Made by a program: the position numbers and the translations under genes
Notes under the pieces: model-generated
What the model was told of the DNA's origin: nothing
Database searches by the model: none
The model's input: the letters and a program-made list of their open reading frames with translations, nothing else
Origin: an uncultured Oscillospiraceae bacterium
Lineage (GTDB): Bacteria; Bacillota_A; Clostridia; Oscillospirales; Oscillospiraceae
Assembly (NCBI GenBank): GCA_900769845.1
Contig: CAAGIF010000128.1
Location: 1 to 28,303 of the forward strand
DNA: 28,303 bases
Direction: 5' to 3'
Part shown: one piece after another, positions 1 to 25,545 of the stretch
Numbering within the stretch: position 1 is the first letter of the stretch
Layout: every line of letters begins with the position of its first letter

Positions 1-1242
1 GCCCTGCAGAACGTGTACGTCAACAGAGGTCTGGCCGTCGGCTGCGGTGGAGAACACCTGGGTCTGCTTTACCGGGATGGTGGTGTTGCGCTCGATCAGC
101 CGGGTGAACACACCGCCCATGGTCTCAATACCCAGGGACAGGGGGGTAACATCCAGCAGGACCACATCCTTCACATCGCCGGTAAGCACGCCGCCCTGAA
201 TGGCAGCGCCCAGAGCCACACACTCGTCGGGGTTGATGCCCTTGAAGCCTTCCTTACCGGTGATGGACTTAACAGCGTCCTGAACCGCAGGAATCCGGGT
301 GGAACCGCCAACCAGCAGAACCTTGTGCAGGTCGGAAGCGGACAGGCCGGCATCGCTCATTGCCTGACGGACGGGCTTCAGAGTCCGCTCCACCAGATCA
401 GCGGTCAGCTCATTGAACTTGGCCCGGGTGATGGTCACATCCAGGTGCTTGGGACCGGTGGCGTCCGCGGTGATATAGGGCAGATTGACAGCGGTGGAAG
501 TCATGCCGGACAGTTCGATCTTTGCCTTCTCGGCAGCTTCCTTCAGCCGCTGCATAGCGACCCGGTCATTCTTCAAATCGATGCCCTCAGCCTTCTTGAA
601 CTCGGCAACCAGGTAATCCATCACTCTCTGGTCGAAATCATCGCCGCCCAGATGGGTGTCACCGTTGGTAGCCAGAACTTCCACGATGCCGTCGCCGATC
701 TCCAGAATGGAAACGTCGAAGGTGCCGCCGCCCAGGTCGTAGACCATGATCTTCTGGTCGTTGTCCTTGTCCAGACCGTAAGCCAGAGCGGCTGCGGTGG
801 GCTCGTTGATGATGCGCTTGACTTCCAGACCGGCAATCTTACCGGCATCCTTGGTTGCCTGGCGCTGAGAGTCGGAGAAGTAAGCGGGGACGGTGATGAC
901 AGCTTCGGTAACGGGCTGTCCCAGATAAGCTTCGGCATCCGCCTTCAGCTTCTGCAGCACCATAGCGCTGATCTCCTGGGGGGTGTAGTTCTTGCCGTCG
1001 ATGGAAACCTTGTAATTTTCACCCATGTGGCGCTTGATGGAGGCCACGGTGCGGTCAGCATTGGTGACAGCCTGGCGCTTTGCAACCTGGCCCACCATGC
1101 GCTCTCCGGTCTTGCTGAATGCAACCACGGAAGGTGTGGTACGGCCGCCTTCGGCGTTGGCGATAACAACGGGTTCGCCGCCTTCCAGAACCGCAACGCA
1201 GGAATTGGTAGTACCAAGGTCAATACCGATGATTTTAGACAT
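1..1242 (-). CDS. dnaK: Molecular chaperone DnaK (Hsp70), C-terminus cut by window edge
   Basis: ATP-dependent Hsp70 chaperone that binds unfolded polypeptides together with DnaJ and the exchange factor GrpE. The minus strand from the ATG at 1240-1242 opens with [21 protein letters not shown], the Hsp70 phosphate-1 ATP-binding motif, and continues unbroken for 414 codons to base 1. The last residues in the window ([10 protein letters not shown]) belong to the start of the substrate-binding domain, so about 200 C-terminal residues of a usual 610-640 residue protein lie outside. A clean AGGAGG sits about 9 bases upstream of the ATG (1252-1257). It is the third gene after hrcA and grpE, with a 42-bp gap from grpE, so it is expected to be repressed by HrcA through the CIRCE at 2911-2937. 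Identity is certain. Confidence 0.97.
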
Positions 1243-22847: not shown

Positions 22848-22958
22848 ATGGAATACAAGAAGAAACTGCACAGGGTTCATGGTATTATGCCGGTACTCGC
22901 AATCACAGCGATCCTGTACGCACGGAACAACCGGGCGGATCTGAAAAAACTGCAATAA
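22848..22958 (+). CDS. 36-residue basic hydrophobic peptide gene
   Basis: Plus-strand ATG (22848-22850) to TAA (22956-22958). The peptide starts MEYKKKLHRVHG, then a short hydrophobic run (IMPVLAITAILYA), then a charged tail ending RADLKKLQ. AGGAGG lies 8 bases upstream (22834-22839), and a terminator follows 4 bases after the stop. An ATG one codon earlier is also possible. I do not recognise it. It is divergent from the LytTR operon and lies between it and a repeat. The hydrophobic run is short for a membrane helix. No convincing promoter was found in 22700-22833. Confidence 0.6.
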   Translation: MEYKKKLHRVHGIMPVLAITAILYARNNRADLKKLQ

Positions 22959-22962
22959 GGAA

Positions 22963-22993
22963 CCGCCGGTGGAAATATCGGCGGCTATTTTTT
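22963..22993 (+). terminator. Terminator of the 36-residue peptide gene
   Basis: Stem CCGCCG (22963-22968) pairs with CGGCGG (22979-22984), loop 10 bases, followed by six T (22988-22993). Confidence 0.78.
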
Positions 22994-23022
22994 GATCTGA
23001 TGACACTTTATCGGCTGTTTTT

Positions 23023-23139
23023 GTCCAACCGGAATCGAGCCACACCCCACCGGGGTGTGGCATTCGGATGGGTTCGAGTCCTATTCCTATAGGAAACAAA
23101 GAAGAGAGGCCTCTCGACCTCTCTTCTTTATTTGGTACG
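23023..23139. repeat. Repeat copy 1 (hairpin, T-arm-like sequence, terminator hairpin)
   Basis: 117 bases nearly identical (5 differences, no gaps) to 24404-24520. It contains the 10-bp hairpin GCCACACCCC-ACC-GGGGTGTGGC (23039-23061), a T-arm-like GGGTTCGAGTCC, and a terminator-like stem AAAGAAGAGAGG / CCTCTCTTCTTT. The 5' part of the unit seen at 24362-24403 is missing, and the segment after TTTGG is degenerate (TACGGGTGTTCATAACGG). The two copies lie either side of the lipoprotein gene. Confidence 0.88.
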
Positions 23140-23160
23140 GGTGTTCATAACGGACTTAAT

Positions 23161-23179
23161 AAAAATCGCAGCCTGCGAT
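23161..23179 (-). terminator. Probable terminator of the lipoprotein gene
   Basis: On the minus strand the short stem ATCGCA-GGC-TGCGAT is followed by TTTTTATT, about 40 bases after the lipoprotein stop codon. The stem is only 6 bp, so strength is uncertain. Confidence 0.5.
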
Positions 23180-23218
23180 CTTCCCAACGCCAAGCAGCAT
23201 CTGCCGGACTCAAGATTT

Positions 23219-24058
23219 TTAATAATACAGTTCCTCTATGACTGTGCGGCAGCCGTCAAGATCCATGCCGCATTGGATCGCCGGATGGTAAAGCAGCTTC
23301 AAAATCAACCAATCTATATCACTTAAGGCAGTATTATCGTTGGAATACTGATAGACGATACTGTCCGTTCGCAACACCGTGTCGCTGATACCCAACATAT
23401 TGATAATCTCTTCGATCAATACAGATGTTCGGGTGCTTTGATCAATATCGGTACGATAACCCACATTTGCTGTGTAGATTTCGTTGGTTTCGGTATAGTA
23501 CCAAAATTGTGTCGCTCCATAGGCGTCTTCACCGTTGAGAAAATCACTGAAATACATATTGAAATCCTCGGAATCCCAGAAACCAATCATGAGATTGGCC
23601 GGCTCGCCCTCCGCCCGGGCATAGATTCCCGGGAATCCTGGAATCTCATTCAACTGTGCAAACAACGCCGTTAACACCGAAAGATCCTCTTCAGTCGGGG
23701 TTCCGTATATAGAATAAAGAATCGGTTCTTTCCATTTCTGCACAAGAGCAGCATTGCCTGTGCCATCCGAATACTCCGTACGCAGCACAACTTCCTCAAA
23801 ATACTCCCATACCTGTTGGCTTGTGTATTCCGGAAGATACAGCGCTGAGTGCGCAGGCGCGGTTGTTTCCGTTTCCCCTGTTGTGATTTCCTGTATTTCT
23901 ATGGTTGCGGCCGATGTTGTATCCTCGATGACCGACTCTGTAGGCAAAATTTCGTATGTTGGCAGAGACGTACTGTTACTCTCTAAATTTACACCTGCGC
24001 AGGCGCAAAGTAGCAAAACTAACGCCAAATTCAGTCCCAGACAGAGTCCTTTTCGCAT
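23219..24058 (-). CDS. DUF2927-like lipoprotein
   Basis: A 279-residue secreted lipoprotein. A type II signal peptide (MRKGLCLGLNLALVLLLCAC) places the lipidated cysteine at Cys20 in an LCAC lipobox. A Ser/Thr/Glu-rich linker follows to about residue 70, then a globular domain. The domain's C-terminal half (SVLIEEIINMLGISD, then DIDWLILKLLYHPAIQCGMDLDGC) fits DUF2927, a domain of unknown function in Clostridia lipoproteins. The ATG (24056-24058) has GAGGGGG about 7 bases upstream. It is monocistronic with its own promoter and lies between two copies of a 117-bp repeat. Confidence 0.82.
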   Translation of the reverse strand: MRKGLCLGLNLALVLLLCACAGVNLESNSTSLPTYEILPTESVIEDTTSAATIEIQEITTGETETTAPAHSALYLPEYTSQQVWEYFEEVVLRTEYSDGTGNAALVQKWKEPILYSIYGTPTEEDLSVLTALFAQLNEIPGFPGIYARAEGEPANLMIGFWDSEDFNMYFSDFLNGEDAYGATQFWYYTETNEIYTANVGYRTDIDQSTRTSVLIEEIINMLGISDTVLRTDSIVYQYSNDNTALSDIDWLILKLLYHPAIQCGMDLDGCRTVIEELYY

Positions 24059-24089
24059 GGCAACCCCCTCTTAAGAATGGAATAATTCT

Positions 24090-24118
24090 AGTATAGTATC
24101 TAATGGGTGCCTCGTCAA
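24090..24118 (-). promoter_or_regulatory. Sigma-A-type promoter of the lipoprotein gene
   Basis: On the minus strand TTGACG (24113-24118) and TATACT (24090-24095) are separated by 17 bases, 31 bases before the ATG. Confidence 0.87.
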
Positions 24119-24175
24119 TACCTCTCGTGATCGCTGGTTGACTACAAGTGGGATGCCTTTTGTTCTTGGAGTGAT

Positions 24176-24211
24176 CAAACAAAGAGAGGGAATCGTCCCT
24201 CTCTTTGTTTG
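24176..24211. terminator. Terminator-like 16-bp hairpin at the left end of the array
   Basis: A perfect 16-bp stem CAAACAAAGAGAGGGA / TCCCTCTCTTTGTTTG with loop ATCG. Its A-rich and T-rich outer ends make it terminator-like on both strands. Confidence 0.8.
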
Positions 24212-24322
24212 GTGCGGGCAACAGGAGTCGATTTAATCATAGTGTTGCCGCCGACGAGCCGTCGGCAAGCAGATGTCCACCGGACATCTGCATTTGGATG
24301 GGTTCTCGTCCGGTGCCCACAT
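24211..24322. repeat. Structured repeat unit 1
   Basis: A 112-base unit that aligns without gaps to 24362-24473. It begins GGTGCGG and carries two adjacent hairpins. P2 is at 24245-24268, whose outer stem TTGCCGCCG / CGTCGGCAA has one mismatch; an alternative inner stem is GCCGACG-AGC-CGTCGGC. P3 is at 24269-24291, GCAGATGTCC-ACC-GGACATCTGC, a perfect 10 bp. It ends in a T-arm-like GGATGGGTTCTCGTCC. The ends can pair through GGGCA (24216-24220) and TGCCC (24314-24318). Strand of any transcript is unknown. Confidence 0.72.
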
Positions 24323-24364
24323 ACCAACACAAAAGGCACCCCCAAGGGTGCCTTTTGTGTTGGT
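24323..24364. terminator. Terminator-like 19-bp hairpin between the two units
   Basis: A perfect 19-bp stem starting ACCAACACAAAAGGCACCC (24323-24341), loop CCAA, with its exact complement at 24346-24364. Long AT-rich outer arms resemble a bidirectional terminator. Confidence 0.82.
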
Positions 24365-24473
24365 GCGGATGTCAGGACTCGAGTATATTATCGTGTCGAT
24401 TCCGTCCAGCCGGAATCGAGCCACACCCCACCGGGGTGTGGCATTCGGATGGGTTCGAGTCCTGTTCCTATAT
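24362..24473. repeat. Structured repeat unit 2
   Basis: A 112-base unit homologous to 24211-24322. P2 is TCGATTCCG-TCCAGC-CGGAATCGA (24396-24419), a perfect 9 bp. P3 is GCCACACCCC-ACC-GGGGTGTGGC (24420-24442), a perfect 10 bp. The unit is closed by P1, CAGGACTCGA (24373-24382) with TCGAGTCCTG (24455-24464). On the minus strand the unit ends TCGAGTCCTGACATCCGCACCA, like a tRNA 3' end, directly before the 19-bp hairpin. Its right part (24404 on) belongs to the 117-bp repeat shared with 23023-23139. Confidence 0.75.
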
Positions 24474-24478
24474 GAAAC

Positions 24479-24510
24479 AAAGAAGAGAGGCCTTTCGACC
24501 TCTCTTCTTT
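24479..24510. terminator. Terminator-like hairpin at the right end of the array
   Basis: A 12-bp stem AAAGAAGAGAGG / CCTCTCTTCTTT with an 8-base loop. On the minus strand it follows the tRNA-like CCA end at 24513-24518 and would terminate transcripts coming from the AraC gene. Confidence 0.82.
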
Positions 24511-24512
24511 AT

Positions 24513-24585
24513 TTGGTGCGGATGACAGGACTCGAACCTGCACGCTTGCGCGTTGGAACCTAAAGATGATGTCACCTTAGTGAAG
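24513..24585 (-). repeat. tRNA-Leu 3'-half-like sequence, right copy
   Basis: On the minus strand it reads TTTAGGTTCCAACGCGCAAG, CGTGCAGG, then TTCGAGTCCTGTCATCCGCACCA. This gives a hairpin ACGC-GCAA-GCGT like a long variable arm, a 5-bp T-arm and an acceptor strand with encoded CCA, as in tRNA-Leu. The 5' acceptor strand and D-arm are absent; instead it begins CTTCACTAAGGTGACA, shared with the left copy at 20622-20695. The AraC stop codon (24577-24579) lies inside it. It is judged a partial or remnant tRNA, possibly an attachment site. Confidence 0.68.
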
Positions 24586-25545
24586 ATTTAGATTGTTGAT
24601 ATCCTGCAAATTGCGGTACTCCCGGGGCGAGATACCGTACTCCTGCTTGAACGCCCGGTAGAAGGCGGAGTAATCGCAGAAGCCTGCCATTTCTCCGATC
24701 TGTCCAAGGGGAAATCCTTCTGTCATCAGATGCTTTGCCACCGTCAGCCGCTGTTGGGTAACATAGCGGTGAAAGCTGATTCCAAGCCGGTTTCGGCACA
24801 GGTGTGTGATGGTACTCTCACTGACCAGAAGCTGCCGGGCCGCGCTGCTGATGGAGATCTTCTCCTTCAGATGACTTTCGACATATTCCAGCAGCTCATC
24901 CAGCAGTTCATTATGTTCGGAGAGCAGATGCTTCCTATCGTTGAGCAGAGCGCGGTTCAAAAGTGTAATCAGCATGGTGGTGTTTCCGTAAAGGGCCGCC
25001 TCCCAGCCGGGATAACGCTTATCGGATTCGCTGCATCCCCTCCGAAAGGTTTCCCCGATGGGCTCCTCCCAATAGGTCCCCCCGGTCCGCAGCAGGTAGC
25101 TGCTGTGCCAACAGCCGCTGGCATATTCAATCTCCGGCCACTTCCGGTAGAATTGCTGCAAAAGCTCCGCATTGACCCACACCACGATTCGCTCATAGGG
25201 CCTGTCCATTACCTCCGGAAAGAGGGGGCCATGGCTGACTCCGGGAGGGATAAACAGCACATCGCCCTTCTGGAGTCGGTAGCGTTGACTGCCCAGAAGA
25301 TACTGGACATTATCGCAGCTGCAGCAAAAGATCAGTTCATAAAAGCTGTGGCTGTGGGGCTGAACCCGTTCCCTGGCTGTACTGATATCCCTGTGGCTAT
25401 CCACATAGGAAGAGCTCATCTCCAGTTCCTGATAGATATTTTCCAGACAGATACCCATGCTGTCCAACTTGTTTTTCAGTTCCAGCATATTCAGCGTATT
25501 GCCCGCCGCCCTCCGGACCTGATTCATTAATTCGGCAATGTTCAT
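24577..25545 (-). CDS. AraC-family transcriptional regulator
   Basis: A 322-residue regulator with an N-terminal cupin-like ligand domain and a C-terminal double HTH. The cupin part is recognised by VQPHSHSFYELIFCCS (residues ~61-76) and YRLQKGDVLFIPPGVSHG (~88-105). The AraC HTH covers about residues 222-315: ISISSAARQLLVSESTITHLCRNRLGISFHRYVTQQRLTVAKHLM, then PLGQIGEMAGFCDYSAFYRAFKQEYGISPREYR. The ATG (25543-25545) has CGGAGA about 7 bases upstream. It is divergent from the symporter-hydrolase set across a 176-bp AT-rich gap and is its most likely activator. Its last codons run into the tRNA-like repeat. Confidence 0.92.
   Translation of the reverse strand: MNIAELMNQVRRAAGNTLNMLELKNKLDSMGICLENIYQELEMSSSYVDSHRDISTARERVQPHSHSFYELIFCCSCDNVQYLLGSQRYRLQKGDVLFIPPGVSHGPLFPEVMDRPYERIVVWVNAELLQQFYRKWPEIEYASGCWHSSYLLRTGGTYWEEPIGETFRRGCSESDKRYPGWEAALYGNTTMLITLLNRALLNDRKHLLSEHNELLDELLEYVESHLKEKISISSAARQLLVSESTITHLCRNRLGISFHRYVTQQRLTVAKHLMTEGFPLGQIGEMAGFCDYSAFYRAFKQEYGISPREYRNLQDINNLNLH

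What the first reader, a model, noticed from the sequence alone, without database searches (positions are those of the whole stretch)
24211..24473. Tandem structured units with compensatory stem changes: candidate undescribed structured RNA or folded-DNA element
Two 112-base units (24211-24322 and 24362-24473) align with no gaps. Both carry two adjacent hairpins at identical offsets (34 bases from GGTGCGG). In P3 six of ten base pairs differ between units (GCAGATGTCC/GGACATCTGC versus GCCACACCCC/GGGGTGTGGC), yet all still pair and the loop ACC is unchanged. In P2 four of five changed pairs remain complementary and one is broken. The stems change while the fold stays, which is the mark of selection on structure. 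On the minus strand each unit ends like a tRNA 3' end with CCA and is followed directly by a terminator-like hairpin. I know of no named family that fits, but I could not search one.
Basis: partly seen in the sequence, partly recalled or inferred. Interest (0 to 1): 0.8.

Follow-up and report, generated by a model that had tools for sequence, protein, structure and literature searches.

The report
Folded mini-insertions at tRNA 3' ends
The two repeated hairpin units belong to a family, not described in the sources searched, of roughly 150-base insertions that gut bacteria of one genus carry just behind their tRNA genes, each duplicating the tail of the tRNA it sits behind and ending in a copy of that tRNA's T-loop.

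Summary
The two 112-base units are real, fold better than shuffled sequence and match no Rfam family. Homologues: 114 of 136 genomes of one Oscillospiraceae-related genus (840 matches, a lower bound), 20 of 400 drawn from the family (13 outside the genus), and only the seed genome of 391 drawn from the class. The window belongs to that genus (HrcA up to 88% identical). Units lie behind tRNA genes of 14 isoacceptors. The left end repeats the neighbouring tRNA's 3' end (T-loop towards CCA); the right end is an inverted copy of its T-loop and T-stem strand. One tRNA-Val site occurs empty (13 of 30 places) and filled (16 of 30), showing insertion with a 22-base duplication. P2 and P3 covary strongly across 22 units, yet almost without G-U pairs, unlike tRNA stems in the same DNA. 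I read this as a non-autonomous mobile element folding as single-stranded DNA, rather than an RNA. Its enzyme is unknown; reverse transcriptase and RAYT transposase fit poorly. The window pair sits beside a truncated tRNA-Leu(UAG).

The parts
24176..24211 (.). terminator-like perfect hairpin left of unit 1 (16-bp arms, 4-nt loop)
   Evidence: pair I5
24210..24231 (-). unit 1 left arm: copy of a tRNA-Leu 3' end (T-loop to CCA); 21 of 22 nt match the tRNA-Leu(UAG) of genome G005, 18 of 22 the window's own fragment
24245..24268 (.). unit 1 stem P2 in the family register (24245-24253 with 24260-24268; one broken pair)
   Evidence: A1 columns 25-48
24269..24291 (.). unit 1 stem P3, loop ACC
   Evidence: A1 columns 49-71
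24303..24314 (+). unit 1 right arm: inverted T-loop/T-stem-like copy, changed in the T-loop (TTCTCGTCC)
24323..24364 (.). terminator-like perfect hairpin between units 1 and 2
   Evidence: pair I4
24361..24382 (-). unit 2 left arm: copy of the tRNA-Leu(UAG) 3' end, 21 of 22 nt match the adjacent fragment
24396..24419 (.). unit 2 stem P2 (24396-24404 with 24411-24419)
24420..24442 (.). unit 2 stem P3, loop ACC
24443..24453 (.). linker ATTCGGATGGG between P3 and right arm (family motif GCATTYRGATGGG)
24454..24465 (+). unit 2 right arm TTCGAGTCCTGT: inverted copy of the tRNA-Leu T-loop and T-stem 3' strand, pairs with the left arm as P1
24475..24514 (.). terminator-like hairpin between unit 2 and the tRNA fragment
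   Evidence: pair I7
24514..24564 (-). 3' part of a tRNA-Leu(UAG) gene from the anticodon loop to CCA, 5' half missing (alignment 24503-24564: 93.5% identical over 62 columns to the intact gene region in L009)
23023..23143 (.). third, truncated copy: P3 23039-23061, right arm 23073-23084, terminator-like hairpin 23094-23133; left arm lost
   Evidence: families D1, I2, I6

Best explanation
The units are copies of a non-autonomous mobile DNA element of about 150 bp (here called type A). SHOWN at one tRNA-Val(GAC) site by comparing genomes: it inserts at the T-loop so that the tRNA stays whole. The old 3' end of the tRNA (T-loop to CCA) with its old terminator-like hairpin ends up on the far side as the left arm; the inserted stretch supplies stems P2 and P3, a constant linker, an inverted copy of the tRNA's T-loop/T-stem strand (right arm), another terminator-like hairpin and a second copy of the tRNA 3' end. 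SHOWN: copies occur behind 14 isoacceptors and the right arm carries the neighbouring tRNA's own T-loop letters. INFERRED: the mobile form is single-stranded DNA folded so that left and right arms pair (P1) with P2 and P3 on top; an enzyme that recognises this fold, as integron integrases recognise attC, joins it to the T-arm, and the right arm is rewritten from the new target at insertion, by copying of the paired arm or by strand exchange. INFERRED: the hairpin next to the tRNA terminates its transcript before the element, which makes insertion harmless; new copies enter next to the tRNA and push older ones outwards, giving tandem arrays such as units 1 and 2. The enzyme is not identified.
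For: Empty and filled versions of one tRNA-Val(GAC) site: 13 empty, 16 filled, 1 decayed of 30 places in 17 of 136 genomes, both states within one genome in G232, G236, G002 and G325. Of the 16 filled sites 10 are followed by the second copy and the rest of the tRNA; in 7 of these the 22 bases are identical on both sides, in 3 the left copy has one change. Right arm equals the own tRNA at the variable position 59 in 0.99 of 76 units against 0.31 for other isoacceptors, at 63 in 0.91 against 0.31, with little excess from 66 on; 0 of 5000 permutations reach the observed match for 61 units. Cores are somewhat more alike within a genome across different arms (mean 0.694, 64 pairs) than between genomes with the same arm (0.636, 300 pairs) or different arms (0.621, 1223 pairs), as expected if copies spread between tRNAs and change arms. 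Up to 26 matches per genome; G222 has four copies of equal score, three of them within 130 bases of a contig start. P2/P3 covariation almost without G-U wobble.
Against: No enzyme found: among the 16 largest clusters of neighbouring open frames that I read, the only recombinase-like one is a large serine recombinase at tRNA-Val and tRNA-Gln, best read as a separate element. No excised or circular form and no active movement was seen. In L273 (outside the genus) the arms fit a different tRNA from the neighbour. Only 32 of 76 left arms match the tRNA at all 21 positions compared; agreement drops to 0.68-0.84 at positions 70-76, so the duplication is not always full length or has decayed. The empty/filled test was done for one tRNA only. 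Scarcity of G-U could partly reflect young copies. The within-genome likeness was not tested for significance.
Confidence: 0.6

Rival explanations
1. A structured non-coding RNA made with or against the tRNA transcript, for example an antisense partner of the tRNA 3' end that tunes processing or termination; P1-P3 are RNA stems.
For: Strong fold and covariation of P2/P3; read from the tRNA strand, the right arm is complementary to the tRNA's T-arm; many copies per genome keep the fold.
Against: Almost no G-U pairs (1 of 418 cells in A1; 14 of 759 against 65 of 818 in tRNA stems); terminator-like hairpins on both sides in the window and, by eye, at many units with a full left arm; insertion polymorphism with empty sites; no Rfam match.
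Confidence: 0.15
2. Leftover attachment sites of ordinary tRNA-integrating phages or conjugative elements: each unit is an attR scar or a cis-mobilisable mini-element moved by conventional tyrosine or serine integrases.
For: Direct repeats of a tRNA 3' part are a usual mark of such integrations (passages of PMC9897764 and PMC2647930); tandem islands beside ssrA with 20-bp repeats and a serine recombinase are known in Dehalococcoides (passages of PMC3146451); serine-recombinase genes sit at the same tRNA-Val and tRNA-Gln ends.
Against: Related cores occur behind 14 isoacceptors with matching arms, while one integrase normally serves one site (recalled); no integrase gene recurs beside the units in the clusters read apart from the serine recombinases at two tRNAs; an inverted T-arm copy is not part of a normal att pair (recalled).
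Confidence: 0.15
3. A mutational product of the host: template switching or fold-back copying at tRNA terminators makes inverted copies, later amplified by recombination; no dedicated mobile element.
For: The right arm is an inverted copy of variable length (0.91, 0.68, 0.61 at positions 63-65, then near background), as fold-back copying would leave; a minimal palindromic form exists (L110).
Against: P2, P3 and the linker are shared by 114 of 136 genomes and nearly confined to this clade, which repeated independent copying of tRNAs would not give.
Confidence: 0.1

Closest known systems
Integrative elements at tRNA/tmRNA genes (tyrosine-recombinase att sites; Dehalococcoides ssrA islands with the serine recombinase DsiB)
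   Same: Insertion with the gene kept whole and a direct repeat of its 3' part on the far side; [quoted passage not shown]
   Different: About 150 bp, no genes, many isoacceptors for related cores, an inverted T-arm copy at the other end, a terminator-like hairpin of its own.
Integron attC sites
   Same: Little sequence conservation but a conserved fold that is recognised as a single strand (PMC2727003, abstract start in the listing); outer boxes pair (recalled).
   Different: By eye no GTTRRRY/RYYYAAC boxes (motif recalled; rows); outer boxes copy the neighbouring tRNA; integron integrases were not searched for.
REP/BIME repeats with RAYT transposases (names recalled)
   Same: Short repeated hairpins in intergenic DNA without genes; RAYT-like genes occur in 34 of 61 genomes.
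   Different: The two RAYT-like loci read in full carry GTAG-type hairpins of their own (L168, L169); 21 of 27 genomes without RAYT still have units, and numbers do not differ clearly (p = 0.20).
Tandem repeats behind E. coli tyrT (rtT RNA)
   Same: Repeats behind a tRNA gene, each with a copy of the tRNA 3' end (recalled; one search found no paper on it, one search failed).
   Different: One locus, one tRNA, no T-arm inversion or spread to other tRNAs (recalled).
tRNA-targeting retrotransposons (Dictyostelium TRE5-A, yeast Ty3)
   Same: Use tRNA genes as safe insertion sites (PMC5006619 and PMC8632968, abstract starts in the listing).
   Different: RVT_1 reverse transcriptase in only 3 of 12 unit-bearing genomes.

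Membership tests
Any Rfam RNA family | covariance model match at gathering score | tested here: not met
   0 matches in the window; 18 matches in 15 unit-bearing loci, all tRNA
Integrative element at a tRNA gene | intact tRNA plus direct repeat of its 3' end on the far side | tested here: met
Integrative element at a tRNA gene | integrase gene within the element | tested here: not met
   units of about 150 bp between repeats leave no room for one
Integron cassette array | attC consensus boxes and an IntI-type integrase | not tested
   no integrase model was searched; boxes judged by eye
Integron cassette array | fold conserved while sequence varies | tested here: met
RAYT-mobilised REP | GTAG tetranucleotide at the hairpin foot and RAYT in the genome | tested here: not met
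   by eye no GTAG foot in the 85 rows; no RAYT match in 21 of the 50 unit-bearing genomes among 61 (assemblies may be incomplete)
Retroelement | reverse transcriptase in host genomes | tested here: not met
   RVT_1 in 3 of 12 genomes with units, none in G256 and G214 with 15 and 13 units (assemblies may be incomplete)
Functional RNA | covarying stems that tolerate G-U pairs | tested here: not met
Functional RNA | transcript over the unit | not testable with these tools
   no expression data
MITE-like non-autonomous mobile element | empty and filled sites with target duplication | tested here: met
   one tRNA
MITE-like non-autonomous mobile element | autonomous parent with the same ends | tested here: inconclusive

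The most novel reading that the evidence does not exclude
A new class of mobile DNA whose target specificity lies in a folded single strand and is rewritten at every insertion: the element pairs with the T-arm of any tRNA gene, inserts there with a terminator of its own so that the tRNA survives, and copies the new target into its right arm. A second, differently built 'type B' element with the same T-arm-matched right end would then be a sister class.
Probability: 0.3. Interest if true: 0.85.

Novelty: new variant of a known kind. Interest (0 to 1): 0.64.

Why it matters
If right, one small element family colonises tRNA genes of a whole genus without breaking them and adapts its end to each target, which no mobile element I know of does. 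It would give a new model of structure-guided DNA insertion, could explain stray tRNA 3' ends in gut metagenomes, and warns that covariation and stable folds near tRNAs need not mean RNA.

Tried and rejected
Rfam at E up to 5 on 22900-24700: 16 weak matches, none near its gathering score, mostly microRNA models over the terminator-like hairpins. tRNA search: no tRNA called in the window. Phage and plasmid collections: 19 and 2 records; where annotated the matches are tRNA-Leu/Ser 3' ends or fall on a terminator-like hairpin. Viral contigs: one contig, L001. Family-wide pattern search: 13 of 200 genomes; of the 12 loci read, only L038 is a real unit, and the reversed-pattern control gave 8 matches. 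RAYT/Y1 transposase: looked promising because genes lie within about 1.3 kb of units in G001, G245 and G257 and a fragment lies beside one in G262, but L168 and L169 carry their own GTAG hairpins and RAYT presence does not track unit number. Reverse transcriptase: rejected. Large serine recombinase at tRNA-Val: its junction is present at 5 of 16 filled and 0 of 13 empty sites, but the search pattern could not see empty sites already split by it, so nothing follows. Larger autonomous version: left junctions without a near right junction were decayed or mixed copies. Literature: sought such an element and listed none by title or abstract start (I did not open the listed papers except passages of three); preprints and most subscription papers are not in that library.

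Weak points of my own tests: the left arm was anchored on positions 55-65, so the high match there is partly built in, while 66-76 are free; 3 of 76 units were dropped for weak anchors. One search counts 131 motif matches at up to two mismatches, which include chance hits in coding DNA. In one search unit stems needed at least 6 Watson-Crick pairs while tRNA acceptor stems needed 6 of 7 Watson-Crick or G-U pairs, which leans against G-U in units; A1, not filtered by pairing (the 21 rows with arm spacing 69, plus unit 1), shows the same. Unit counts are lower bounds, because only 31, 10 and 10 candidates per genome were scored. In one search G238, not listed, was taken as zero. The serine recombinases are Resolvase/Recombinase proteins by Pfam.

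Full report
WHAT IS THERE. The window holds two 112-base units (24211-24322, 24362-24473) and a truncated third copy (23023-23143, 95% identical to 24404-24524). Each unit has two adjacent hairpins, P2 and P3 (loop ACC in P3); in unit 2 the ends pair as a closing stem P1 (CAGGACTCGA / TCGAGTCCTG), which is degraded in unit 1. Folding energies beat all 200 shuffles on both strands; unit 1 alone prefers a shifted P2. Terminator-like hairpins lie at 24176-24211, 24323-24364 and 24475-24514. At 24514-24564, minus strand, lies the 3' part of a tRNA-Leu(UAG) gene from the anticodon loop to CCA; its 5' half is missing and ARAGORN calls no tRNA. Unit 2's left arm matches this tRNA end at 21 of 22 positions; unit 1's left arm matches at 18 of 22, but matches the tRNA-Leu(UAG) of genome G005 at 21 of 22, so unit 1 records another version of the same tRNA.

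RELATIVES. No Rfam family matches. The motif GCATTYGGATGGGTTCNNGTCC finds eight loci in the public genome collection, all in assemblies titled Oscillospiraceae, Clostridiales or Clostridia; six of the eight name goat, roe deer or cow. A covariance model from 22 units matches 114 of 136 genomes of one genus at E <= 0.001, 840 matches in all by my sum of the table, median 6 and up to 26 per genome. At E <= 1e-5 it matches 20 of 400 genomes drawn from the family, 13 of them not among the 136, and only the seed genome of 391 drawn from the class. The window is a member of that genus: its HrcA (Pfam) is 86-88% identical to the four nearest genomes, and 119 of 136 genomes have a match.

POSITION AND ENDS. 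Of 131 motif matches held at that point (chance hits included), 61 lie within 110 bases of an intact tRNA gene on the opposite strand, 14 isoacceptors in all, led by Gln(CUG), Val(GAC), Gly(CCC), Val(CAC) and Leu(CAA). The left arm repeats the 3' end of that tRNA: positions 55-69 match at 0.93-1.00 and 70-76 at 0.68-0.84 in the 73 of 76 units that could be anchored; 32 of 76 match at all 21 positions compared. The right arm is an inverted copy of positions 54 to about 65: at position 59, the most variable one in the T-loop, it agrees with the own tRNA in 0.99 of 76 units and with other isoacceptors in 0.31; at 63 the values are 0.91 and 0.31, at 64 0.68 and 0.21, at 65 0.61 and 0.40, and from 66 on the excess is small. 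For 61 units no permutation of 5000 reached the observed agreement. One exception, L273, has arms of another tRNA than its neighbour.

INSERTION. The junction of an old terminator-like hairpin with tRNA-Val(GAC) was searched in 136 genomes: 30 places in 17 genomes. Thirteen are empty (hairpin directly followed by the tRNA), 16 are filled by a unit and one (L202) is decayed. In 10 of the 16 filled sites the second copy of TGGTGGACGATATAGGACTCGA, i.e. the tRNA 3' end from T-loop to CCA, follows 128-139 bases later and runs into the rest of the tRNA; in seven of them both copies are identical, in three the left one has a single change. In five filled sites a serine-recombinase gene starts inside the second copy, and in L188 another unit follows. 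By eye the hairpin next to the tRNA differs from the old one on the far side. Both states occur within one genome in G232, G236, G002 and G325. This shows insertion with a target duplication.

FOLD: DNA OR RNA. In the gapless alignment A1, P2 and P3 form standard pairs in 96.9% of cells (shuffled 71.4 +- 1.4) with covariation 0.700 (0.212 +- 0.020); sliding the partners by 1-3 columns drops pairing to 30-44%. Yet only 1 of 418 cells is a G-U pair, against 13 cells without a standard pair, nine of these at one position. In a wider set, 14 of 759 stem cells are G-T and 59 are mismatched, whereas acceptor and T stems of 69 tRNAs from the same loci have 65 G-U and 6 mismatches in 818 cells (filters differ, see weak points). 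Stems kept through RNA pairing normally pass through G-U; these rarely do, on either strand (7 A-C cells in P2 and 6 in P3 would be the wobble of the other strand). I take this as evidence for pairing in DNA. P1 must be left out of such arguments: of 803 compared cells, 89 have at least one arm that departs from the tRNA, and in only 2 of these do the arms still pair with each other, so P1 covaries because both arms copy the tRNA.

MOBILITY. Cores in one genome with different arms are somewhat more alike (mean 0.694, 64 pairs) than cores with the same arm in different genomes (0.636, 300 pairs) or with different arms in different genomes (0.621, 1223 pairs; only pairs of similar length, no significance test), and the nearest neighbour of 45 of 85 units has a different arm. 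I read this as movement between tRNAs with change of arms. Tandem arrays of near-identical units (G256, L272) and partial copies further out fit repeated entry next to the tRNA. Genes may lie between copies: the window has a DUF2927 gene with a lipoprotein-like start (23219-24058) between the third copy and unit 1, and G001 two small open frames by my reading; I cannot say whether they travel with the element.

ENZYME. Reverse transcriptase (RVT_1) is present in 3 of 12 unit-bearing genomes. RAYT-like Y1 transposases are in 34 of 61 genomes; the two loci read carry their own GTAG-type hairpins and unit numbers do not clearly depend on RAYT (mean 7.6 against 5.4, p = 0.20; 21 of 27 genomes without RAYT have units). 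Large serine recombinases recur beside units at tRNA-Val and tRNA-Gln, best read as separate elements. The mechanism I commit to, a fold-recognising recombinase acting on a single strand as in integrons, is inference; for attC the abstract start of PMC2727003 (listing) speaks of bottom-strand recombination, poor sequence conservation and structural recognition.

KNOWN KINDS. Partial tRNA copies and direct repeats of tRNA 3' parts are typical of integrative elements (passages of PMC9897764 and PMC2647930), and Dehalococcoides stacks islands beside ssrA with 20-bp repeats, a T-loop insertion point and a serine recombinase (passages of PMC3146451). The present elements share the place and the duplication but are tiny, gene-free, serve many tRNAs and carry the inverted target copy. 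Six literature searches listed no such element.

VERDICT. Observation confirmed, interpretation partly supported: a folded element, most likely mobile DNA and not an RNA gene. Interest 0.64.

Noticed in passing
L021, L061, L074, L107, L216, L239-L268: A second element, 'type B' (GGANTC-TCCCACGGGCTAA, one or two hairpins, CGCCC-TTTCGANTCC), also sits near tRNA 3' ends: 79 of 136 genomes match its motif at up to one mismatch, with 6 reversed-pattern control matches; 29 of 43 places read have a tRNA within 700 bases; its right arm equals the own tRNA at position 59 in 19 of 19 units against 0.38 for others.
   Followed up: partly
L137, L168, L169: RAYT-like Y1 transposase genes (about 175 aa in L137; a fragment in L169); L168 and L169 show GTAG-type hairpins such as GTAGGGACACCCGTCCCCGGGTGTCC.
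   Followed up: partly
L003, L065, L069, L182, L189, L191, L200, L203; L072: Large serine recombinase genes abutting the acceptor end of tRNA-Val(GAC) (TGGTGGAC|ACATACT) or of tRNA-Gln (L072); the one in L003 looks truncated.
   Followed up: partly
L137, about 520-1240 (minus strand): Two small adjacent open frames between a RAYT-like gene and a partial unit at tRNA-Ser in G001; the layout resembles a cargo cassette.
   Followed up: no
window 24514-24600: The tRNA-Leu(UAG) gene is cut at the anticodon loop and its 5' half is replaced by other sequence, so the window may lack a working copy here or the contig may be mis-joined.
   Followed up: no
window 23219-24058 (-): DUF2927 protein of 279 aa with a lipoprotein-like start, lying between the third copy and unit 1.
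   Followed up: no
L001:1-700: One unit lies at the end of an IMG/VR contig, next to sequence that I read as an insertion sequence; not tested.
   Followed up: no
unit loci: 38 of 61 units beside a tRNA sit behind isoacceptors with C at anticodon position 34 (Gln CUG, Gly CCC, Val CAC, Leu CAA/CAG, Ser CGA, Met CAU); not tested against the tRNA gene content of the genomes.
   Followed up: no
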